Position numbers and translations under genes: made by a program
In this document: positions 1 to 8,286 of the stretch, in pieces
Layout of the letters: the number at the start of each line of letters is the position of its first letter
Position numbering within the stretch: position 1 is the first letter of the stretch
Notes under the pieces: model-generated
What the model was told of the DNA's origin: nothing
Seen by the model: the letters and a program-made list of their open reading frames with translations, nothing else
Databases searched by the model: none
NCBI RefSeq assembly: GCF_003851545.1
Contig: NZ_BHVX01000002.1
Location: 62,001 to 126,000, forward strand
Direction: 5' to 3'
DNA: 64,000 nt
Source of the DNA: Ralstonia sp. SET104
GTDB taxonomy: Bacteria > Pseudomonadota > Gammaproteobacteria > Burkholderiales > Burkholderiaceae

Positions 1-69
1 CGATTCTCCGTTCCGGCAAAATTCCGGCAAAGGGTACAGTTTCGGCATTGCGCCCCCTCGCTAGGGACG

Positions 70-103
70 AAAAAAAAGCACCGGCGATTGCTCGCAAGTG
101 CTT
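70..103 (-). terminator. Original tRNA-Lys terminator, stranded outside the island
   Basis: Read on the minus strand, a 6-bp outer stem (98-103 with 76-81) and a 4-bp inner stem (92-95 with 84-87) lead into a run of eight T (77 to 70). This is a classic intrinsic terminator. It lies just beyond the 49-bp copy of the tRNA-Lys 3' end. Before the island inserted it would have sat directly downstream of the tRNA gene now found at 8211-8286. The assignment to that tRNA is inferred from position and orientation. Confidence 0.7.
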
Positions 104-126
104 GATTTTCTTACCCTCAGGGAGGG

Positions 127-175
127 TGGTGGGGCGTGAGTGACTCGAACACTCGACCTACGGATTAAGAGTCCG
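127..175 (-). repeat. attL: duplicated 3' end of tRNA-Lys
   Basis: These 49 bases are identical to 8211-8259, the 3' end of the intact tRNA-Lys(CTT) gene: CCA tail, 3' acceptor strand, T arm, variable loop and anticodon arm. Identity stops at 175, inside the anticodon region, and the rest of a tRNA is missing, so this is not a functional tRNA. Integrases that target tRNA genes leave such a duplication at the distal end of the element. It marks the left boundary of the island. Confidence 0.93.
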
Positions 176-305
176 ACAGTCGCGGCATTTCGCAACATTC
201 CCCACCGTTGATTTTCAATGCACATTCCCTTGTAAATCAGTGGCTTAGCCATTGAAAAGGCCTCGCTCTCGTTGACTAAAATTCCGCTAAATTCAGGTAG
301 ACTGG

Positions 306-324
306 CTACATGGCGGCTACATGG
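306..324 (+). repeat. Left arm-type repeat of the island
   Basis: The 19-mer CTACATGGCGGCTACATGG occurs here and again, exactly and in the same orientation, at 8136-8154, just inside the other end. It is itself two near-copies of GCTACATGG spaced 11 bp apart, about one helical turn. This arrangement matches arm-type sites bound by the N-terminal domain of tyrosine integrases. It also lies in the integrase leader, so the integrase could repress its own gene. The function is inferred from placement. Confidence 0.6.
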
Positions 325-353
325 AGCCGCCGCTTTAGAAAAGGAGTGGCGCC

Positions 354-1667
354 GTGGCCAGACCGAAGAAGGACCAAACCCCCGACCTGAGCCAGCGGGT
401 CGCCCTCACCGTGGGGCACATCGAGCGCCTGAAGTGCCCGGACGGCAAGGACCAGGCGTTTTTGCGCGACAGCGAGGCGCCCTCGCTGCGCGTGCGCGTC
501 ACGATGGCGGGCGCGAAGTCGTTCGTGTTCGAGGCCAAGCTGCGCGGCCAGACCATCCGCACCACCATTGGGGCCGTGCAGTCGTGGAGCATCGAAGCGG
601 CCCGCGCGGAAGCGCGCCGGCTGTCCGTCACCGTCGACTGCGGCATCGACCCTCGGGAGGAGTTGCGCGAAGCCATCGAGGCGGAGCGCCGCCAGCGCGA
701 CGCGCGCAAGCGTGCCGAGCATTTCACCCTGCACCGTCTGCTGACCGACTATGCCGACTACCTTGAGCAGCAGGGCAAGCCGTCACACCGCGACGCGCGC
801 AGCATCTTCAAGAACCACGTTTTCACGCCTTGGCCGAAAGCCAGCAAGATGGCCGCCTGCATCGTCACTCACCACGAGGTGGCTATGTTCATGCGCAAGG
901 CCATGGAGAAGGGCCACAGCCGCACGGCCAACAAGCTGCGCAGCTTCATGATGGCCGCGTTCCAGGTCGCCATCACGGCCTCGTCCAACCCGAAGACTCC
1001 GCTGTGCTTCCACGGCTATGGTGTGACGAGCAATCCCGCAGCGGCCACGGTCCCAGACGAAGCGGCCAACCAACCCGACAAGAACCCGCTTAGCCTGCAG
1101 GAGTTGCGCAGCTACTGGCAGGCCATCAAACCCCTGGAGGGCATGCGGGGCGCGGTGTTGCGCCTGCACCTGCTGACCGGCGGTCAGCGCATTGAGCAGT
1201 TGCTGAGACTGAAGACCGCGAAGGTGACGGACACCGAAATCACCCTATACGACGGCAAGGGGCGTCCCGGCAAACCGCCGCGCCCGCACAGCGTGCCCCT
1301 GATTCCGCTGGCCGCTGAGGCCCTGCGTGAGCTGCAGTCGAGCGGTGAGTATGCGCTGAGCACGACCGGAGGCACTACGCACATTGCCTCCCTCACGTTA
1401 TCGGGTTGGGCCAAGGAGGCGGCGCCGGCCGCCATCGCCGGTTTCCAGGCCAAGCGCATCCGCTCCGGGGTGGAAACCGCCTTGGCTGCCGCCCGCATTT
1501 CGAAGGACGTGCGCGGCCGCCTGCAGTCCCATGGCATCACCGGCGTGCAGGACCGGCACTACGACGGCCATGAGTACATGGACGAGAAGCGGCACGCCCT
1601 GGAGGTGCTATTTGCCCTGCTGGACAGTCCGGCGCAGTCGAATGTCGCCCCCTTGCTGGCTGCATGA
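354..1667 (+). CDS. int: Tyrosine recombinase (phage-type integrase) of the island
   Basis: A 437-residue integrase that would catalyse insertion and excision at tRNA-Lys. The start is a GTG preceded by AAAGGAG. The N-terminal ~100 residues resemble the DUF4102-type arm-binding domain of P4-like integrases, the middle is the SAM-like core-binding domain, and the C-terminal half is catalytic. Visible active-site elements are Arg279 in TGGQR, a KRIR box in place of the usual HxxR, His393, and Tyr403 in HYDGHEYMDEKR, which aligns with the P4-family nucleophile. It reads inward from attL, the usual place for an element integrase. The catalytic box is divergent but the protein is full length and looks intact. 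Confidence 0.93.
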   Translation: MARPKKDQTPDLSQRVALTVGHIERLKCPDGKDQAFLRDSEAPSLRVRVTMAGAKSFVFEAKLRGQTIRTTIGAVQSWSIEAARAEARRLSVTVDCGIDPREELREAIEAERRQRDARKRAEHFTLHRLLTDYADYLEQQGKPSHRDARSIFKNHVFTPWPKASKMAACIVTHHEVAMFMRKAMEKGHSRTANKLRSFMMAAFQVAITASSNPKTPLCFHGYGVTSNPAAATVPDEAANQPDKNPLSLQELRSYWQAIKPLEGMRGAVLRLHLLTGGQRIEQLLRLKTAKVTDTEITLYDGKGRPGKPPRPHSVPLIPLAAEALRELQSSGEYALSTTGGTTHIASLTLSGWAKEAAPAAIAGFQAKRIRSGVETALAAARISKDVRGRLQSHGITGVQDRHYDGHEYMDEKRHALEVLFALLDSPAQSNVAPLLAA

Positions 1668-1729
1668 CCCTGTCCGGCATGCCCAGCGTCAGGCCGAGTC
1701 GGCTTGGCGCGCGGTGGTCTGCTACAATC

Positions 1730-1756
1730 TTGTAACCCGTAAAGTTACGCTATACA
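1730..1756 (+). promoter_or_regulatory. Probable promoter/operator of the higBA pair
   Basis: An inverted repeat GTAAC-N7-GTTAC (1732-1748) lies directly before the toxin start. It falls between TTGTAA (1730-1735) and TATACA (1751-1756), plausible -35 and -10 elements with a slightly short 15-bp spacer. HigA-type antitoxins normally bind such palindromes and repress their own operon. The site was found by eye and the binding is inferred. Confidence 0.4.
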
Positions 1757-1759
1757 ATC

Positions 1760-2038
1760 ATGATAAAGAGCTTTGCCCACAAGGGTTTGGAGAAATTCTT
1801 TACCACGGGCAGCAAGGCGGGCATCCGGGCGAACCACGCCGACAAGCTGCGGCGGCAATTGGCACGGTTGGACGTTGCGGCAAAGCCGCAGGACATGAAT
1901 GTCCCTGGCTGGAAGCTGCACCCGCTCAGCGGGGAGTTGGCGGAGCATTGGGCCGTGTGGGTCAGCGGCAACTGGCGCCTGACCTTCCGCTTTGACGGCG
2001 AGGATGCCGAGATTGTGAATTACCAGGATTACCACTGA
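1760..2038 (+). CDS. higB: HigB/RelE-family toxin
   Basis: A 92-residue protein with the HigB/RelE-fold pattern. It has an N-terminal helix pair (IKSFAHKGLEKFF), a basic middle, a PGWKLHPL strand, and the C-terminal WRLTFRF...AEIVNYQDYH block typical of the 'killer protein' HigB group. Family members are ribosome-dependent mRNA endonucleases that block translation when the antitoxin is lost. The toxin gene comes first, as in higBA loci, and the antitoxin follows after 10 bp. In a mobile island such a pair is expected to stabilise inheritance. Its activity here is inferred from family membership. Confidence 0.88.
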   Translation: MIKSFAHKGLEKFFTTGSKAGIRANHADKLRRQLARLDVAAKPQDMNVPGWKLHPLSGELAEHWAVWVSGNWRLTFRFDGEDAEIVNYQDYH

Positions 2039-2048
2039 GAGAACGACC

Positions 2049-2360
2049 ATGACGCGAATGCATAACCCCCCGCACCCTGGCGCCACGTTGCGCGAGGATG
2101 TGCTGCCTGCGCTTGGACTGTCAGTCACGGAAGCGGCCCGCCAACTTGGCGTGACTCGCGTTGCCCTCTCGCGTGTGCTGAACGAGCACGCCGCCATCTC
2201 GCCCGAAATGGCGCTGCGCATCGAGGCGTGGCTCGGAGTCGAGCGCGGCGGGTCGGCGGATGTCTGGCTAGCTGAGCAGGCCTCGTATGACTTGTGGCTT
2301 GCCCGCCAGAGTGGGGTATCTCACGTGGAGCGCGCCCCCGAGGAAGTCGAGGCCGTCTGA
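2049..2360 (+). CDS. higA: HigA-family antitoxin, HTH regulator
   Basis: A 103-residue XRE/HTH protein that would neutralise the upstream toxin and repress the operon. The N-terminal block MHNPPHPGATLREDVLPALG and the helix-turn-helix TEAARQLGVTRVALSRVLN (about residues 27-46), followed by ISPEMALRIEAWLG, are the hallmark of HigA/VapI antitoxins. Translation could start at 2049 or at the second Met at 2058, which matches the family's usual N terminus. The ~20-residue C-terminal tail is longer and less conserved. The gene lies 10 bp after higB. Confidence 0.88.
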   Translation: MTRMHNPPHPGATLREDVLPALGLSVTEAARQLGVTRVALSRVLNEHAAISPEMALRIEAWLGVERGGSADVWLAEQASYDLWLARQSGVSHVERAPEEVEAV

Positions 2361-2463
2361 CCGTAACCGTTCTGCCCTGCCTAGCTTTAGCGGGCGAAAA
2401 GCCGGAGACCTTCACCGGCCTGGCAGGGGCTCCCATGCGAAGGTTTGCACGTGAAGGGGTGCC

Positions 2464-2916
2464 ATGGCTGCACTGGACGAATTTGCGGCAAGGTTCGGGC
2501 GTCCGCAATCGGCTTGGACGAAGGCGCAGTGGAAACAAGCGGCAATCGAGCTTGCATCGAGGCTCGACCGCACTGACCGGACGCCCGCCAAGCGAGGCCG
2601 GCCGCGCCACGACGATGCCGCATTTGTCATGGGCAAAGATGGCAAGGTGACGGTCTCCCAAAAGTCGAACTATGCGGCGCTCGCATGGCAGGTAAAGCAG
2701 CGCATGGAACAGGCAGACGCAGACGGTCGACCGCTCGCAATGAAAGAGGCCGTGCGCGAGGAGTTGGTGGAGGCGATACGGCGGCACAATGCCGCCCCGC
2801 CAGACCAGCGAGGGGAACGAAACGGCGAGCTCCGGGAGTCTCGCGCGAATGCAATGCTTGAAACGGCCTACACCGAGGTCCGCAAGCTATTGAAGAAATG
2901 GCGCGAGGAATGCTGA
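2464..2916 (+). CDS. Hypothetical island protein, charged, 150 aa
   Basis: I do not recognise this protein. It is hydrophilic and helix-rich: an N-terminal WTKAQWKQAAIELASRL segment, a basic KRGRPRHDD patch near residues 42-50, a VTVSQKSNYAALAWQVKQRMEQ segment, and a C-terminal amphipathic helix ending in RKLLKKWREEC. No signal peptide or membrane segment is visible. GAAGGGG lies about 6 bp before the ATG, a good ribosome site. The AT-hook-like RGRPR patch hints at nucleic-acid contact, but that is speculation. It sits between the toxin-antitoxin pair and the replication module, co-directional with both. Confidence 0.6.
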   Translation: MAALDEFAARFGRPQSAWTKAQWKQAAIELASRLDRTDRTPAKRGRPRHDDAAFVMGKDGKVTVSQKSNYAALAWQVKQRMEQADADGRPLAMKEAVREELVEAIRRHNAAPPDQRGERNGELRESRANAMLETAYTEVRKLLKKWREEC

Positions 2917-3107
2917 CCGCTGAAGGACTGGCAAGGGTCGAAGCGGATATTTAATCGGCCCAATTTTTCCCCGCTGCAGAAGTACGAACCTATATCAACG
3001 CTGAGATTTAAAGCCGATTGGGGCGGAATCTTGGAGCGTTGAAACGAACTCAGCACGTTATCAGCGTACCAGGACCCGCCGCGCGCGGCCCGAAATTGGA
3101 CGTTGAT

Positions 3108-3329
3108 ATGAACAACCTGGTTCAACCCATCCCGCCCGGACTCGCTGCCATCGCACGCGGGCGTGACGCCCTGCCTACCAATGAAGCCGCCACTGTTCTG
3201 AACCGCAAGGACCAGACGATGCGCAAATGGGCCTGCCTTGAGAACGGCCCTATCCGCCCCGTTCGCATCCATGGTCGATTGGCCTGGCGCGTTGTCGACT
3301 TGGCGAAGCTGCTGAACGGGGGGCAATAA
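3108..3329 (+). CDS. Small DNA-binding protein, excisionase/AlpA-like
   Basis: A 73-residue protein starting at MNNLVQPIPPG. The centre, ALPTNEAATVLNRKDQTMRKWAC, fits a winged-helix/MerR-like recognition unit, and GRLAWRVVDLAKLLNGG is a closing wing and helix. Such small proteins serve as excisionases or as regulators of the replication module in phage-like elements. An in-frame start 90 bp upstream (3018) would add a poorly conserved leader, and I prefer 3108. The stop overlaps the next start (TAATG), suggesting translational coupling. It is not a close match to a named family that I can confirm. Confidence 0.62.
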   Translation: MNNLVQPIPPGLAAIARGRDALPTNEAATVLNRKDQTMRKWACLENGPIRPVRIHGRLAWRVVDLAKLLNGGQ

Positions 3330-3625
3330 TGAAAAAACGCCCGACCGACAAGAGCCAATCGAGCGCCAACGAACGCGGTGATTTTAACTCGACCGAGGCG
3401 CAGCGCGCCAGACTGCTGGCCGCTCTGCGGCGCGGTCCCGTGACAACCATCGAGGCGCGGCGCGACCTCGATATTCTGATGCCTGCTGCGCGGGTTTTCG
3501 AGCTTCGGCACCGCGAAGGCTACGACATCGCGTTGTACTGGGTGCAGGAGGCAACCCAGGCGGGCCGCATGCATCGTGTCGCGCGATACGCTTTGATGCC
3601 CACGCATGGTTCCTCGATGGCGTAA
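3329..3625 (+). CDS. Winged helix-turn-helix protein (HTH_39-like)
   Basis: A 98-residue protein whose core runs from TEAQRARLLAALRRGPVTTIEARRDL through the recognition helix region to RVFELRHREGYDIAL. It ends with a small beta hairpin (RVARYALM). This matches the helix-turn-helix family often found just before primase/helicase genes in phages and islands. The polar first 25 residues may be disordered. The start codon overlaps the stop of the upstream gene by one base, and the next gene begins 10 bp after this stop, so the run looks like one transcription unit. A regulatory or replication-accessory role is inferred. Confidence 0.7.
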   Translation: MKKRPTDKSQSSANERGDFNSTEAQRARLLAALRRGPVTTIEARRDLDILMPAARVFELRHREGYDIALYWVQEATQAGRMHRVARYALMPTHGSSMA

Positions 3626-3635
3626 GGGGGCCGAC

Positions 3636-4460
3636 ATGGTTGTTTGGACTGATTACGCGACTGGCGACCATCGCGTTACCTGCCCCGCCTGCGGACGTGG
3701 TGAACGCGACAAGACCTTGGGCTTGACCATCGAGGCGGGCGGTAAAGGTGTGGCGCATTGTTTCCGCTGCGCTTTCACCGCGAGCTACCACCCGGACCGT
3801 GGCGCACGTCAGCAAGCCGCCAAGCCACGCATCAAGGCCACAACGATGCAACGGCATGCGGTGCTGTCCGACTATGGCCGCGAGCTGTGGCGCGCCTGTA
3901 AGCCGCTGTCGGGCGTTGCCGTGGCCTATCTTGAAGGCCGCCGCTGCGTCATTCCGCCCGCTGACGGTGATTTGCGCTTTCATCCGGCGTTGAAGCACCC
4001 GACCGGCGACACTGGCCCCGCACTGGTGGGCCTCATCACGGATGCTGTGACGCGCGAGCCGCTGAGCCTACACCGTACCTGGGTTCAAGCCGATGGCCGC
4101 AAGGCTGACGTTGACCCGCCGCGCCTGTTGTTGGGTGGGCATCGCAAGCAAGGGGGTGTGATTCGTCTGTGGCCTGATGAAGCCGTGACGGTCGGCCTGG
4201 GCATCGCGGAGGGCATCGAAACGGCACTCAGTCTGGCATGGGCCTATGCGCCGGTGTGGGCCTGTATCGACGCCGGGAACATGGCGGGCTTTCCTGTGCT
4301 GTCCGGTATCGAGGCGCTGGCCATCGGCGCGGACAACGACGCGGCCGGACATGCGGCCGCCCAAGCGTGCGCCGCTAGGTGGGTCGCTGCTGACGTTGAG
4401 GTGTTCATCACGCGCCAAGCCCAAAACGACCTGAACGACGCAATCAAGGGGGCCGCATGA
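3636..4460 (+). CDS. Zinc-finger/Toprim primase-like replication protein
   Basis: A 274-residue protein. Residues 16-45 contain a Cys4 zinc finger (C16xxC19 ... C42xxC45) of the type found in DnaG and phage primases. The C-terminal half holds a Toprim fold: acidic IAEGIETALS followed by IDAGNM and GADNDAAG. The middle matches the DUF7146 region of phage/plasmid primases. The ATG at 3636 follows AAGGGGG, which is why I prefer it to an upstream in-frame ATG. Its last bases overlap the ATPase start (ATGA). With the ATPase and SSB it would form the element's own priming and unwinding machinery. Confidence 0.82.
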   Translation: MVVWTDYATGDHRVTCPACGRGERDKTLGLTIEAGGKGVAHCFRCAFTASYHPDRGARQQAAKPRIKATTMQRHAVLSDYGRELWRACKPLSGVAVAYLEGRRCVIPPADGDLRFHPALKHPTGDTGPALVGLITDAVTREPLSLHRTWVQADGRKADVDPPRLLLGGHRKQGGVIRLWPDEAVTVGLGIAEGIETALSLAWAYAPVWACIDAGNMAGFPVLSGIEALAIGADNDAAGHAAAQACAARWVAADVEVFITRQAQNDLNDAIKGAA

Positions 4461-5641
4461 ACGCCCCCGCTGAAATCATACGCGGCGTGCTCGCCAATGC
4501 TGAGCGCATCCGTAAGCCCGAGCCGGTGCGCGATGGTGTCATCCTTGTAAATGGCGCGGACCTGGAACCGCAACCGGTGCGTTGGCTGTGGCGTGACTGG
4601 CTGGCATTGGGCAAGCTGCACATCCTGGCCGGTGCCCCGGGGCAAGGCAAGACGACAATTGCCCTGGCCTTTGCCGCGACGGTGACGAGCGGCGGACGCT
4701 GGCCGGATGGCTCGCGCTGTGAGCCGGGTAACGTGCTGGTGTGGTCTGGCGAGGACGACCCCGCCGATACGCTGCTGCCGCGCTTGCTGGCTGCCGGTGG
4801 TGACCGAGGGTGCGTGTATTTTGTCGCTGGCTCCCGCGTGAATGGCGAGGTTGAGAGCTTCGACCCGGCGCGCGACATGGCAACGCTGCAAGCCGAGGCC
4901 GAGCGCATCGGCAATGTCCGCCTCCTCATCGTTGACCCGGTGGTGAGCGCCGTTACCGGCGACTCTCACAAGAACACCGAGACGCGCCGTGCGCTGCAAC
5001 CACTGGTCGACCTGGGCGCCAGCATGGGTGCCGCCGTGGTGGGCATTACGCACTTCAGCAAAGGTGGGCAAGGTTCTGACCCGACGCAACGTGTGGTTGG
5101 CTCCGTTGCCTTTACTGCCGTGGCTCGCGTGGTGCTGGTGGCCGCCAAAGTGAAAAGCGAGGACGGCGAAGACCGCCGCATCCTGGCCCGCAGCAAATCC
5201 AACATCGGCCCGGACGAAGGCGGGTTCGAATATCGCCTTGAACAGTCCGAACCGCTGCCGGATATTCTGGCGTCCTATGTCGCCTGGGGTGCCTCGGTGG
5301 CTGGGACCGCCCGCGAACTGTTGACCGACCCGGAGGAGCAGGACGACGGCGAAGTGAGTGCGAAGGATGCTGCAATCGAGTTCATTAAGGAGGTGCTGGG
5401 CGATGACGTGGTGCCGATGAAGGCTATCGAGGCCGAGGCGAAGGAAGCCGGCATTGCGTGGCGAACCGTGCGCCGCGCTGCCGACGCGCTGGGTGTGAAA
5501 AGCCGCAAAGGCGAGGGTGGGAAGTGGTATTGGAGCCTGCCCAAGGTGGCCAACATGGCCAACCTGTCCAACGTTGAAACCATGGACACCTTGGCCACCT
5601 TGACCGCGCCAGTCAATCAGGAGAGCAACGAATGCGCGTGA
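4457..5641 (+). CDS. RepA/DnaB-type AAA ATPase (replicative helicase-like)
   Basis: A 394-residue RecA-fold ATPase. Walker A is GAPGQGKT at residues 59-66 and Walker B is RLLIVDPVV, with ThrHisPheSer (THFSK) further on as in RepA/AAA_25 proteins. The first ~40 residues carry a short N-terminal domain. The last ~80 residues form a winged-helix region (AIEAEAKEAGIAWRTVRRAADALGVKSRKG) that could bind origin DNA. Relatives act as hexameric helicases or helicase loaders of plasmids and phages. The gene overlaps the Toprim gene by 4 bp, so the two are probably co-translated. Confidence 0.82.
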   Translation: MNAPAEIIRGVLANAERIRKPEPVRDGVILVNGADLEPQPVRWLWRDWLALGKLHILAGAPGQGKTTIALAFAATVTSGGRWPDGSRCEPGNVLVWSGEDDPADTLLPRLLAAGGDRGCVYFVAGSRVNGEVESFDPARDMATLQAEAERIGNVRLLIVDPVVSAVTGDSHKNTETRRALQPLVDLGASMGAAVVGITHFSKGGQGSDPTQRVVGSVAFTAVARVVLVAAKVKSEDGEDRRILARSKSNIGPDEGGFEYRLEQSEPLPDILASYVAWGASVAGTARELLTDPEEQDDGEVSAKDAAIEFIKEVLGDDVVPMKAIEAEAKEAGIAWRTVRRAADALGVKSRKGEGGKWYWSLPKVANMANLSNVETMDTLATLTAPVNQESNECA

Positions 5642-5757
5642 ATCGTCCAACCCCGTTGGACAAGTTGAAAGCACTCCTACAGGCCGTGTCAGAAGGTGCC
5701 TGGGTAGTGCTGTTGCGTGTGTGCGTATTCGTTCGCGGCGTGCTGCCGTGGGCATGA
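5632..5757 (+). CDS. 41-residue mini-protein overlapping the ATPase gene
   Basis: A short reading frame starting inside the last codons of the ATPase gene and ending 12 bp before the SSB gene. The product begins MRVNRPTPLDKLKALL, continues with a hydrophobic stretch (WVVLLRVCVFVRGVLPW) and stops. The overlap and the tight fit between two real genes suggest it is translated, perhaps by coupling. The hydrophobic tail could insert in a membrane or pack against a partner. Function unknown. It could also be a chance frame filling a 130-bp gap. Confidence 0.45.
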   Translation: MRVNRPTPLDKLKALLQAVSEGAWVVLLRVCVFVRGVLPWA

Positions 5758-5769
5758 GCGAGGTGAAAA

Positions 5770-6141
5770 ATGATTGATGGTCTGATTGGCGGCAAGCTGT
5801 ACGGCACCGCTGAGGAACGCACTGGAAAGAGCGGCAAGGCATTCGTCACGGCCAAGGTGCGGGCTGCTGGCGGCGACGGTGAAACGTTGTTCGTGAACGT
5901 CATCACGTTCAGCCGCACCGTTGGGGATGCACTGCTAGCGCTGGAGGACGGCGATTCCGTGGCGCTATCTGGGGTGCTGACCCCGAAGGTTTGGACGGAC
6001 AAGAACGGCGAGACGCGGCCAGCGCTGGACATGGTGGCCCATGCCGTTTTGACTGCCTATCACGTGAAGCGCAAGCGGCAGGCCGTCCAACATCAGGCCC
6101 CGCCGGCTGGCGGCGACGGGTTCGAGGATGAGGCTTTCTAA
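5770..6141 (+). CDS. ssb: Single-stranded DNA-binding protein (SSB-like)
   Basis: A 123-residue OB-fold protein. The pattern GLIGGKLYGTAEERTGKSGKAFVTAKVRA ... VNVITFSRTVGDALLALEDGDSVALSGVLTPKVW is the phage/plasmid SSB core. A glycine-rich linker leads to an acidic, aromatic-terminated tail (GFEDEAF), like the partner-binding tip (DDDIPF) of bacterial SSB. It would coat single strands made by the element's helicase. The upstream GAGGTGAAAA gives a ribosome site for the ATG at 5770. It is the last clear gene of the replication run. Confidence 0.85.
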   Translation: MIDGLIGGKLYGTAEERTGKSGKAFVTAKVRAAGGDGETLFVNVITFSRTVGDALLALEDGDSVALSGVLTPKVWTDKNGETRPALDMVAHAVLTAYHVKRKRQAVQHQAPPAGGDGFEDEAF

Positions 6142-6209
6142 AGTAGGCGCAAATAGGTGCAGGCGGATGAGTTAGTCGGGATTTCTGCCCTTCAAACAAA
6201 GAGTTGCCG

Positions 6210-6434
6210 ATGCCATCGAAGAATGCCGAAAGGCTGGCGCAGTACAAGGCCAAAATGCGCAAGGCTGGCTTCAAGCGTCTGTCTGCGTGGGTTTGCCCCG
6301 AGTTGGCGGCAATGCTCGCAGCGAAGCGGCAGCCTCACGAGTGTGGCGGTAGGACACTGGAACGCCTGCTGCTAGGAGAAGCCAGGAAGCGCCCGGACTA
6401 TTGGGCGCCGCAAACAGAAAATAAGTCCAAGTAA
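6210..6434 (+). CDS. Small basic protein, possible ribbon-helix-helix regulator
   Basis: A 74-residue, strongly basic protein that begins MPSKNAERLAQYKAKMRKAGFKRLSAW. Similar short proteins with K/R-rich N termini followed by a 'hRLSaWV.PELaa.L' block occur in plasmids and islands and look like ribbon-helix-helix DNA-binding proteins. I cannot confirm the family. A TTG two codons upstream (6204) is an alternative start. It follows SSB by about 70 bp and is the last rightward gene of the element. A copy-control, partition or repressor role would fit, as inference only. Confidence 0.55.
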   Translation: MPSKNAERLAQYKAKMRKAGFKRLSAWVCPELAAMLAAKRQPHECGGRTLERLLLGEARKRPDYWAPQTENKSK

Positions 6435-6798
6435 GTTGATAGGCAGCCGCCAATTCGAGACCAGTACGCGCCCGCGCACGAGGGCGGACATGGCGATTGC
6501 TAAAGTAGTGAAAGATAGTGAAGCGGACTCAGCTTGAATTGAAAACAATCAAAAAAATTCAAAGCGGGCGGCGCTGCTGAGAGCAACTGGAAACAACTAG
6601 GGATAACTTGCCTGCGAATACGGAAAGCAGCACAGAAACAGCCATGTCGTGGTGCTATCGCCCCCAGCGATGAACCTGCTAACAGGATGAAAGCAGGGCT
6701 GGGCGAGACGGCTGCCTGTTACGGTTTGTTGGCGACTTTCCCGCATGCATCGCGCGGGGACCCCATGCCCTTCTGCAAATCAGAAGAGAATGAAGAGC
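6435..6798. other. Non-coding stretch of the island, candidate origin region
   Basis: No convincing gene occupies these ~360 bases. Short open frames here have no ribosome site and no recognisable product. The first half is AT-richer than its surroundings and repeats short A/T words, for example around 6499-6570 (TAAAGTAGTGAAAGATAGTGAA and a run of AATT/CAAAAAAATTC motifs). A phrase at 6140-6167 has a related pattern. A region downstream of primase, helicase and SSB genes that lacks genes and is AT-rich is a natural place for a replication origin. That is inference, since I see no clear iteron array. Confidence 0.3.
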
Positions 6799-7077
6799 TT
6801 AGTCCTCATCAAACGCGTCGTCAGGGTAGGTTCGTACAACATTGTGGTGCGGTGCCGGCCTGCGCATGGGCGTGAAAAAGGCGCTTGTGTTACTTGGGCA
6901 GGCACCTGCCAGCAGTCGAGCACTAGAGATTACCTCCCACAACTGCGCCAGGCTATAGCGCTCATCCCACACAACTTCTTGGCCGTCTTGGAGCCGGTCA
7001 CCGTGGGCATTTAGGCGGGCAATGTTTCGAACAAATTGACGAAGCGCGTGCGCCTCTTCAGCAGAGTCATAATCCAT
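6799..7077 (-). CDS. Unknown 92-aa cytosolic protein, island cargo
   Basis: I do not recognise this protein. It starts MDYDSAEEAHALRQFVRNIARLNAHG and continues with a helical ERYSLAQLWEVISSARLLAG segment, then a polar tail ending in DDAFDED. GGGGGAGA lies 7 bp before the ATG, one of the best ribosome sites in the island, which is the main reason to call it real. It follows the membrane-protein gene by 72 bp on the same strand, so the two probably share a transcript and may work together. No catalytic motif is evident. The acidic C terminus might contact a partner. Confidence 0.55.
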   Translation of the reverse strand: MDYDSAEEAHALRQFVRNIARLNAHGDRLQDGQEVVWDERYSLAQLWEVISSARLLAGACPSNTSAFFTPMRRPAPHHNVVRTYPDDAFDED

Positions 7078-7149
7078 TGGTTCTCCCCCAGCATTGAGCC
7101 TAGCTGCTTGTTCTGGTTAGCCAACTTCGCCGGTCGCATCTGCTTATCG

Positions 7150-8025
7150 TTATTTCTGCATGGCGCTGGCGATGATAAGCGCGCCGATGATGAGGGCCGC
7201 GCTCACGGGCAGAGCAGAAATGCCGGCTATGAACGCCCAAATGATAACGCCTATGAGTGCTAGCCCGAAAAGCCATTTGGAAAGCTCGTGCGCAAGAGCG
7301 CCCGCGCCTACGAAGGCTCCAAGCGCTATCCATCCCGAGTTCCGAGCTTGGAACTCCACGGCAAAGTAATAGGCGCCATAGAGCAGTAATGCAGCGAGCG
7401 CGTACCTTACAGCCGGCTTTTCCAGGAAATCATCAAGCGATGAGCGCCCGGATTGCTCCCGCGTCTGTTCGGCGAGCATGTTGAAGTACGTTTTGGCTTT
7501 TTTCGCGGAGGGAGACAGCTCGTCACTGGCCCGGAGCCTGAACAACCCTATCCCAACAAGGAAAAATGGAAGCATAGGCCATGCGTACCACCAGTACTCG
7601 GTGAATTGCGCATGCTCGAGTTGGACCCACCATACCAGACCGGTTATGGCGATGCTCGTGACCCACCACGGAAGCGCCCGATAGAAACGCTCTCGCACCG
7701 TGTAGTTGACCCGCACAGTCGTGTATCGGCGGACGGCGTCGACACCATTCCGGTAAGCCAGCAAACCCCAAGCCAGCCCAATGGCGAAGGGCACGGCGCC
7801 GACCCAACCGTGGGCGATGTCGAGCACGCCGTCATTGAGCTGGAGCCCCCATAGAATGATGGCAAGCATAAGACCGATACCCGCGCGCCAAGCCAGCGCC
7901 TTGCGACGGGTGCGCTCCGGCGGCACCTCAAGCCAGGTAGCGGGCGTGCCATCTTCGCTGGTGAATACCGGTTTGCCTTCCTGCTCTTGCCCCGTTTCCA
8001 GGGTCAACGGTTTCTCGACTGGCAT
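7150..8025 (-). CDS. Polytopic membrane protein of unknown function, island cargo
   Basis: About 291 residues. A hydrophilic N terminus of ~45 residues precedes membrane segments near LMLAIILWGLQL, AVPFAIGLAWGLLAY, ITSIAITGLVWW-type and PMLPFFLVGIGLF stretches. A ~40-residue polar loop (SPSAKKAKTYFNMLAEQTREQ...) follows, then at least three more segments ending in a long hydrophobic C terminus. That gives roughly seven to eight passes. ATG at 8025 follows AGGTGG; a GTG at 8034 is possible. I know no family for it. It lies at the right end of the island, opposite in direction to the replication genes, the usual cargo position. It could be a phage-resistance, transport or stress protein. Confidence 0.75.
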   Translation of the reverse strand: MPVEKPLTLETGQEQEGKPVFTSEDGTPATWLEVPPERTRRKALAWRAGIGLMLAIILWGLQLNDGVLDIAHGWVGAVPFAIGLAWGLLAYRNGVDAVRRYTTVRVNYTVRERFYRALPWWVTSIAITGLVWWVQLEHAQFTEYWWYAWPMLPFFLVGIGLFRLRASDELSPSAKKAKTYFNMLAEQTREQSGRSSLDDFLEKPAVRYALAALLLYGAYYFAVEFQARNSGWIALGAFVGAGALAHELSKWLFGLALIGVIIWAFIAGISALPVSAALIIGALIIASAMQK

Positions 8026-8057
8026 CGCGCCCACCTAAAGCGTATCGATGCTGCGAG

Positions 8058-8088
8058 TTTATAAGAGCTGTCGCTTTGTAAACGACAA
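8058..8088 (-). promoter_or_regulatory. Possible promoter with inverted repeat for the cargo pair
   Basis: Read on the minus strand, TTGTCG (8088-8083) and TATAAA (8063-8058) form a plausible -35/-10 pair with a somewhat long 19-bp spacer. An inverted repeat TGTCG-N9-CGACA (8069-8087) covers the -35 and spacer, where a repressor would block transcription. The start codon of the membrane protein lies about 33 bp downstream. Evidence is by eye only. Confidence 0.35.
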
Positions 8089-8135
8089 TCGAGCTTACAC
8101 CCCGCCACTGTGGGGTGAGACAACCCGTTGAGCGC

Positions 8136-8154
8136 CTACATGGCGGCTACATGG
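8136..8154 (+). repeat. Right arm-type repeat of the island
   Basis: An exact second copy of the 19-mer at 306-324, in the same orientation, 57 bp inside the right attachment site. Together with the left copy it brackets the element. Integrase arm binding is the likely role, inferred from position. Confidence 0.6.
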
Positions 8155-8167
8155 CGGCCAGAAATTG

Positions 8168-8203
8168 AAAAAGGGTTTGCAGGAACTAGCCTGCAAACCC
8201 TTT
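8168..8203 (-). terminator. Element-borne terminator for tRNA-Lys
   Basis: A perfect 14-bp stem (8170-8183 with 8190-8203) and a 6-base loop lie 8 bp beyond the 3' end of tRNA-Lys. On the minus strand the stem ends in a run of five T. It belongs to the island, since it lies inside the att sites, and would end the tRNA transcript in place of the terminator now 8 kb away at 70-103. Confidence 0.75.
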
Positions 8204-8210
8204 CAGATAC

Positions 8211-8286
8211 TGGTGGGGCGTGAGTGACTCGAACACTCGACCTACGGATTAAGAGTCCGCTGCTCTACCAACTGAGCTAACGCCCC
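8211..8286 (-). tRNA. tRNA-Lys (anticodon CTT); 3' part is attR
   Basis: A complete 76-base cloverleaf on the minus strand: acceptor GGGGCGT paired with ACGCCCC, D arm with AGCTCAGTTGGTAGAGC, anticodon stem GCGGA/TCCGT with loop CTCTTAA (anticodon CTT), T loop TTCGAGT and an encoded CCA. Bases 8211-8259 are repeated at 127-175 and are the right attachment site. The tRNA is preserved intact at the integrase-distal end of the island. Confidence 0.96.

What the first reader, a model, noticed from the sequence alone, without database searches (positions are those of the whole stretch)
127..8259. Complete 8.1-kb replicating island in tRNA-Lys
The sequence shows an intact tRNA-Lys, a 49-bp perfect duplicate of its 3' end 8.1 kb away, an integrase next to the far copy, and between them a compact set of genes for zinc-finger/Toprim priming, ATPase and SSB but no capsid or transfer genes. 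From family knowledge this resembles P4-like satellites or other minimal integrative replicons. It may hitchhike on a helper phage or conjugative element.
Basis: partly seen in the sequence, partly recalled or inferred. Interest (0 to 1): 0.7.

Follow-up and report, generated by a model that had tools for sequence, protein, structure and literature searches.

The report
Satellite-like replicating island in tRNA-Lys
An 8.1-kb piece of mobile DNA sits in a lysine-tRNA gene of a bacterium and carries genes for inserting and copying itself but none recognised for a virus shell or for transfer; some relatives carry virus-shell genes, so it most likely travels inside the particles of a helper phage.

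Summary
A perfect 49-bp repeat (127-175, 8211-8259) brackets an 8,084-bp unit; the right copy is the 3' part of an intact tRNA-Lys(CTT). In 2 of 15 other genomes of the genus the left flank runs straight into tRNA-Lys, i.e. the empty site. The integrase frame is open and 19-bp repeats lie inside both ends. Core genes: AlpA-like HTH, HTH_39, Toprim primase-like, AAA_25 helicase, SSB.

The helicase marks a family: 32 of 398 family genomes; of 54 loci studied, 39 have an integrase upstream and 7 are bounded by long repeats at tRNAs. In 6 of 54 the module is followed by profile-confirmed phage head or packaging genes (capsid in 5, TerS in 3, one of them with protease, portal and TerL); 5 others carry DUF5681, a candidate TerS.

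Best reading: a capsid-less, phage-satellite-type integrative replicon moved by a helper phage. Excision, replication, packaging and helper are untested; the closest replication module (L098) showed no head gene in the ORFs scanned. Tested features of P4, cf-PICI and PICMI are not met, so 'P4-like' holds only for working style. New variant of a known kind.

The parts
127..175 (.). Left att copy: 3' 49-bp fragment of tRNA-Lys beside the integrase
   Evidence: 49/49 identical to 8211-8259
306..324 (+). Arm-type repeat (19 bp), left end; function inferred
   Evidence: Exact copy at 8136-8154; longest match in 1000 shuffles 13 bp; also family D7
354..1667 (+). Tyrosine integrase, 437 aa, divergent branch
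   Evidence: PF13356 8.5e-11, phrog_1 1.7e-22; no match to PF00589; catalytic R, K, R, H, Y kept, box-II His replaced
1760..2038 (+). HigB toxin
   Evidence: PF05015 5.3e-21
2049..2360 (+). HigA antitoxin
   Evidence: TIGR02607 1.3e-27
2374..2443 (+). int-alpA structured RNA (RF02996)
   Evidence: 65.0 bits, gathering score 35.8
2464..2916 (+). orf150, unknown
   Evidence: No Pfam, PHROGs, NCBIfam or PADLOC match; own plus 2 weak partial matches in 398 genomes
3108..3329 (+). HTH_17 protein, AlpA-like (probable excisionase/regulator)
   Evidence: PF12728 5.4e-4, 20.6 bits against cut-off 27; phrog_66 excisionase 0.009
3329..3625 (+). HTH_39 winged-helix protein
   Evidence: PF14090 1.2e-21
3636..4460 (+). 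Primase-like protein, DUF7146 + Toprim_3
   Evidence: PF23639 4.3e-20, PF13362 7.5e-15, phrog_510 DNA primase 1.2e-38
4457..5641 (+). AAA_25 helicase-type ATPase, marker of the family
   Evidence: PF13481 1.1e-39; start overlaps primase stop by 4 bp
5770..6141 (+). Single-strand DNA-binding protein
   Evidence: PF00436 2.5e-7
6210..6434 (+). orf74, small protein
   Evidence: NCBIfam UrfF 0.0011, 19 bits against cut-off 100: weak
6435..6798 (.). Non-coding, lower-GC stretch; candidate origin or packaging site, inferred only
   Evidence: GC 0.54-0.56 in windows over it; no iterons reported
6799..7077 (-). orf92, unknown
   Evidence: No Pfam, PADLOC or PHROGs match
7150..8034 (-). orf294, probable membrane protein, cargo
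   Evidence: Two hydrophobic segments over threshold; no family match; 1 of 398 genomes, the own one
8136..8154 (+). Arm-type repeat (19 bp), right end; function inferred
8211..8286 (-). Intact tRNA-Lys(CTT); its 3' 49 bases (8211-8259) are the right att copy

Best explanation
A capsid-less phage-satellite-type integrative replicon. Shown by sequence: an 8,084-bp unit inserted by site-specific recombination in the 3' part of tRNA-Lys, an open integrase frame, matching repeats inside both ends, an AlpA-like gene, an int-alpA RNA, a compact replication operon (primase-like, helicase, SSB), and no recognised head or transfer gene. Inferred: on a signal from a helper phage, integrase and AlpA-like factor excise the unit as a circle; helicase, Toprim protein and SSB copy it; the helper's machinery packages the copies and delivers them to a new cell, where the integrase inserts them at tRNA-Lys. 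HigBA would stabilise the unit between rounds; orf294 and orf92 would be cargo.
For: Empty site in G012 and G001 with 49/49 att core. Repeats inside both ends. int-alpA RNA in the window and in 15 of 52 relatives scanned, against 4 copies in 16 whole genomes of the genus and 0 of 14 control genomes. Same helicase in 32 of 398 family genomes; integrase upstream in 39 of 54 loci and long tRNA repeats in 7 of 54. Phage genes after the helicase: capsid in L066, L069, L083, L097, L108; TerS in L069, L097, L110; protease and portal in L083, L097; TerL in L097. L069 shares integrase (60%) and helicase (74%) with the window. C4 antisense RNA in 5 of 52 and isrK in 3 of 52 relatives.
Against: The window has no packaging or capsid gene. 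The nearest replication module, L098 (helicase 78%), gave no head gene in the 8 of 17 chosen ORFs sent to Pfam (7 also to PHROGs). Most of the 54 loci show no confirmed head gene, though only part of their ORFs were scanned. The HTH_17 match is below cut-off and the integrase lacks the box-II histidine. No helper found: TerL families phrog_9 and phrog_2 absent from the genome, one PF03237 gene on a 17.8-kb contig with no shared stretch beyond chance-level matches. No DNA match in 50,697 phage records. The helicase family also occurs in ordinary phages (84 records, all under 60% identity).
Confidence: 0.6

Rival explanations
1. An integrative element moved by conjugation: it carries only an unrecognised oriT and borrows relaxase and pore from a conjugative helper.
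For: The same tRNA-Lys holds in G001 a 24.4-kb island with a conjugative coupling protein and TrfA, and 340 bp matching its tRNA-side end lie beside our island, so conjugative-type elements use this site. Split replication modules also fit plasmid-like elements; the helicase occurs in 14 plasmid records, all under 60% identity.
Against: No relaxase or secretion family in the window's 12 proteins; relatives with phage head or packaging genes; int-alpA and C4 RNAs. Relaxases and oriT were not searched for in relatives.
Confidence: 0.13
2. A free-standing integrative plasmid-like replicon without a dedicated helper, spread by chance transduction or DNA uptake.
For: Own primase, helicase, SSB and HigBA; a plasmid (L129) carries integrase-HigB-HigA-replication gene in the same order, with 67.6% DNA identity over the higBA region.
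Against: No replication initiator of a plasmid family recognised; AlpA-like gene and int-alpA RNA fit induced excision; relatives with packaging genes.
Confidence: 0.13
3. A stripped, no longer mobile remnant of a capsid-forming satellite or prophage.
For: L069, with a related integrase, has HNH, TerS and capsid where the window has orf74, non-coding DNA and minus-strand ORFs; L083 and L097 have fuller head sets.
Against: Att copies still 49/49, repeats 19/19, core frames open and tightly spaced; capsid-less satellites such as PICMI work (PMC10803314, passages).
Confidence: 0.12

Closest known systems
PICMI, phage-inducible chromosomal minimalist islands (PMC10803314; passages read)
   Same: Small island with integrase, AlpA and primase as core and no capsid-remodelling genes; AlpA models used there include PF12728
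   Different: PICMI sit at fis in Vibrionaceae and use a DUF3987/DUF5906 primase; here tRNA-Lys, Toprim plus AAA_25 helicase plus SSB
cf-PICI, capsid-forming satellites (PMC13230959; passages read)
   Same: Relatives L097 and L083 carry capsid, protease and portal after the same helicase; L097 also TerS and TerL
   Different: The window has none of these genes
P4-like satellites (PMC8628076; passages read)
   Same: Integrase, AlpA-type regulator, element-coded primase/helicase; C4 RNA (P4-type immunity RNA, recalled) in 5 of 52 relatives
   Different: No psu, sid or delta; split Toprim/AAA_25 in place of the alpha protein
tmRNA islands moved by jumbo phage in Pseudomonas (PMC12595487; abstract and start of introduction read)
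   Same: Integrase, direct repeats at an RNA gene, no recognised genes for autonomous transfer
   Different: They sit at tmRNA and carry phage-defence cargo; their replication genes were not compared here
Rfam RF02996 int-alpA RNA
   Same: RNA at 2374-2443 between integrase and AlpA-like gene
   Different: Here higBA lies between integrase and RNA, 706 bp after the integrase stop; in 9 of 12 measured relatives the gap is 77 bp or less

Membership tests
tRNA-targeted integrative element | Integrase, att repeat of the tRNA 3' end, empty site in relatives | tested here: met
tRNA-targeted integrative element | Excision and circular form | not testable with these tools
   needs DNA or reads of the strain
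Phage satellite (general) | Helper-dependent packaging | not testable with these tools
   only indirect: head or packaging genes in 6 of 54 loci
P4-like satellite | psu, sid, delta | tested here: not met
   No such family among Pfam and PHROGs matches of 12 proteins
cf-PICI | Own capsid, portal, protease, terminase genes | tested here: not met
   met in part by L083 and L097
PICMI | Integrase | tested here: met
PICMI | AlpA (PF05930 or PF12728) | tested here: inconclusive
   PF12728 20.6 bits, cut-off 27
PICMI | DUF3987/DUF5906 primase | tested here: not met
   Toprim_3/DUF7146 and AAA_25 instead
PICMI | Insertion beside fis | tested here: not met
   Insertion in tRNA-Lys
PICI | Stl-type regulator and PICI gene models (SatelliteFinder) | not tested
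   SatelliteFinder models not on hand
VEIME / tycheposon | Their defining gene sets | not tested
   Named in a review only (PMC11389934 section 18 part 1)
Integrative mobilizable element with relaxase | Relaxase gene | tested here: not met
   No relaxase family in the window's 12 proteins
Integrative mobilizable element with oriT only | oriT of a conjugative helper | not tested
   no oriT search was made

The most novel reading that the evidence does not exclude
The unit is the capsid-less form of an undescribed lineage of phage satellites of Burkholderiales and neighbouring Pseudomonadota, defined by a tRNA-site integrase, int-alpA RNA, AlpA-like factor and a Toprim/AAA_25 replication module. 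On that one module the lineage would run from capsid-less (window) through TerS-bearing (L110) and TerS-plus-capsid (L069) to nearly full capsid-forming islands (L097), so that gain or loss of a satellite's own capsid could be followed within one family.
Probability: 0.4. Interest if true: 0.65.

Novelty: new variant of a known kind. Interest (0 to 1): 0.45.

Why it matters
Small islands with replication genes but no transfer genes often stay unassigned. Here one replication module is found at tRNA sites of many genera both without and with phage head genes, so an island that looks featureless can be assigned by what its module keeps company with elsewhere. The int-alpA RNA (function unknown to me) marks part of the family and could be tested in it.

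Tried and rejected
Rejected: chance repeat (49/49 at a tRNA end); island fixed in the genus; ordinary prophage (8 kb, no head, tail or lysis family matched); P4, cf-PICI and PICMI membership (table). No known defence family for orf150, orf74, orf92, orf294 (no PADLOC match at 0.01). No packaging site shared with a resident phage: the one terminase-bearing contig found shares only chance-level short matches with the island (best E 0.12) and has no near match in phage records.

Led nowhere: integrase in IMG/VR and in solved structures; helicase in solved structures (one hit, E 0.076); orf150 in phages; iterons (none seen among the families listed); promoter and terminator scan (1 and 6 sites against 1.6 and 8.9 in shuffles). 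Integrase in plasmids: 2 records, 26-31% identity.

Literature: the ten searches listed no paper that describes this helicase family as satellites; listings were seen as titles and starts of abstracts, and the library lacks most subscription papers, so this is weak evidence of novelty.

Limits of counts: the 54 loci are the window, G008, 30 genome-contig loci, 2 IMG/VR loci and 20 of the 32 family genomes; many are cut by contig ends. L115 was not scanned for RNAs. Downstream ORFs were chosen by a rough codon score and only some went to profile searches, so head-gene counts are lower bounds and absence in a locus is not shown. DUF5681 as TerS rests on gene position in the 2 phage records opened of 22 that matched. 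The claim that an RNA or motif is P4-type immunity (C4), or was first described between integrase and alpA, is recalled.
Full report
What is there. A perfect 49-bp repeat, 127-175 and 8211-8259, starts 8,084 bp apart. The right copy is the 3' part of tRNA-Lys(CTT), 8211-8286 minus strand; a search of the own genome with window 60-400 found only these two places. The integrase (354-1667) lies beside the tRNA fragment, at the end away from the intact tRNA. A 19-bp exact repeat lies inside both ends (306-324 and 8136-8154); in 1000 shuffles of the left end the longest match was 13 bp. These are probably arm sites of the integrase, which has an arm-binding domain. GC is 0.619 in the island and 0.635 in the rest of the window, so composition says little.

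Empty site. The 340 bases left of the island run straight into the tRNA-Lys end in G001 (alignment of 389 bases, 96.4%) and G012 (388 bases, 94.8%); the att core is 49/49 in both. The tRNA-Lys locus is present in 16 of 16 genomes of the genus. A search with the whole interior gave a full match only in this genome and short matches (34 to 125 bases) in six others. G001 has another island at the same tRNA, so G012 is the cleaner empty site. In the other genomes the 2.5 kb left of our island did not match the loci compared; beside tRNA-Lys they carry other DNA.

Genes. Integrase, HigB, HigA, orf150, HTH_17 protein, HTH_39 protein, a DUF7146/Toprim_3 primase-like protein, an AAA_25 helicase whose start overlaps the primase stop by 4 bp, SSB, orf74, and on the minus strand orf92 and orf294. 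The HTH_17 match is below Pfam's cut-off (20.6 against 27 bits); PF12728 is one of two AlpA models used for PICMI (PMC10803314), and with its place in the operon this is why I call it AlpA-like. In relatives Toprim and AAA_25 can be one protein (L037 and L106; L106 and L111 also have PriCT_2 with AAA_25), so the window's pair looks like a primase-helicase in two pieces.

Integrase. Pfam's catalytic-domain model did not match it. In an alignment with 13 others the two arginines, lysine, histidine and tyrosine are kept; the box-II histidine is replaced, as in L069 and L131-L134. Matches at E 1e-40 or better occur in 8 of 398 family genomes, this one included. Activity is not shown.

The RNA. Rfam finds int-alpA RNA (RF02996) at 2374-2443, 65.0 bits. 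From recall, the motif was described between integrase and alpA genes; the searches for it found no paper of use. It is in 15 of 52 relatives scanned. Of 12 relatives measured, 9 have it within 77 bases of the integrase stop; in the window it starts 706 bases after, with higBA between, so higBA looks inserted there. A scan of 16 whole genomes of the genus found 4 copies, this one included, and 14 control genomes none. C4 antisense RNA is in 5 of 52 and isrK in 3 of 52 relatives.

The family. The helicase has relatives (E 1e-20 or better) in 32 of 398 family genomes, this one included, from 11 of 25 genera, at 30 loci of named genomes, mostly Beta- and Gammaproteobacteria with one alphaproteobacterial assembly, and at 2 places in IMG/VR. 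In the genus, G008 matches at 50% and G006 weakly, while G249 of another genus is 78% identical, which speaks for lateral spread. Of 54 loci (window included) 39 have an integrase upstream on the same strand within 9.5 kb and 37 have at least one tRNA in the stretch held. Seven are bounded by long repeats with the intact tRNA away from the integrase: window 8.2 kb, L069 8.9, L075 6.3, L081 7.7, L103 7.4, L111 9.8, L098 19.3 (tRNA included). L087 has a 24-bp repeat in the other orientation. All seven share a repeat of 10 bp or more between their inner ends, but 10 bp alone is within chance (92 of 1000 shuffles reach it).

Phage link. L069 (Hydrogenophaga) is a complete island with HNH endonuclease (2.2e-25), TerS (1.9e-13) and major capsid protein (1.8e-37); among its 10 chosen ORFs 7 were sent to profiles and none matched portal, TerL or tail. 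L097 (9.8-kb IMG/VR contig) has integrase, helicase, capsid (2.4e-73), protease, portal, TerS and TerL in that order and an HNH relative; it ends in TerL, so tail genes cannot be excluded. L083 has capsid, protease and portal; L108 and L066 capsid; L110 TerS (1.1e-34). DUF5681 genes follow the helicase in L075, L078, L081, L091 and L093; in the two phage records opened, a DUF5681 relative lies just before the large terminase gene. So 6 of 54 loci carry confirmed head or packaging genes and 5 more a candidate TerS. Against this: the window has none, and L098, nearest in its replication module, gave none in the ORFs scanned. In phage records the helicase finds 84, all under 60% identity, and the island's DNA finds none.

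Mechanism. Insertion is shown by the sequence. Excision by integrase and AlpA-like factor, replication by primase-helicase-SSB, and packaging by a helper phage are inferred. No helper was identified: two TerL families gave no match in the genome; PF03237 gave one gene on a 17.8-kb contig whose neighbours do not look like phage genes by eye and which shares nothing beyond chance with the island. A helper would come from outside or be of a kind not searched.

Known kinds. It works most like PICMI but sits at another site with another primase. It lacks the P4 genes and the cf-PICI genes, though some relatives look like cf-PICI. A review section (PMC11389934, section 18 part 1) names P4-like, PICI, cf-PICI, PLE, PICMI, VEIMEs and tycheposons; PICI, PLE, VEIME and tycheposon membership was not tested. 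I rate it a new variant of a known kind, interest 0.45: a clean specimen of what looks like an under-described family, with the transfer step untested.

Noticed in passing
L029/L030 (G001:C2:397225-421717); window 1-126: G001 has a 24.4-kb island at the same tRNA-Lys with a far att copy matching 46 of 49 bases, a phage-type integrase, TrfA, a conjugative coupling protein and DUF499. The 340 bp left of our island match its tRNA-side end, so our genome seems to keep a relic of such an element.
   Followed up: partly
L097:1-9828: IMG/VR contig with integrase, helicase, capsid, protease, portal, TerS and TerL in a row: looks like a capsid-forming satellite.
   Followed up: partly
L111 (cargo at original coordinates 6375-8073): Two genes near the tRNA end: an ATPase with weak matches to AriA/AbiLi-type models (1.1e-8) and a partner with a weak HEC-01B match (0.0017): possible defence cargo.
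   Followed up: no
L037 (G008): Another element of the helicase family in the same genus: fused Toprim-AAA_25 protein (50% identity), C4 RNA, a tRNA-Val in the stretch.
   Followed up: no
L142, L143, L144: Three more int-alpA RNAs in the genus (G008, G014, G003); their surroundings were not examined.
   Followed up: no
L119 (G012:C1:1466201-1466268): 68 bp, 88% identical to window 6327-6394 (orf74), beside what looks by eye like transposase fragments: perhaps a relic of a related unit.
   Followed up: partly
L146 (G000:C30:9847-11313): A terminase-like gene on a 17.8-kb contig with no phage neighbours recognised by eye.
   Followed up: partly
L129 (Caballeronia plasmid p4): An 8.2-kb plasmid with integrase, HigB, HigA and a replication gene in the same order; 67.6% DNA identity over 521 bases of higBA, so higBA may shuttle between small replicons.
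   Followed up: partly
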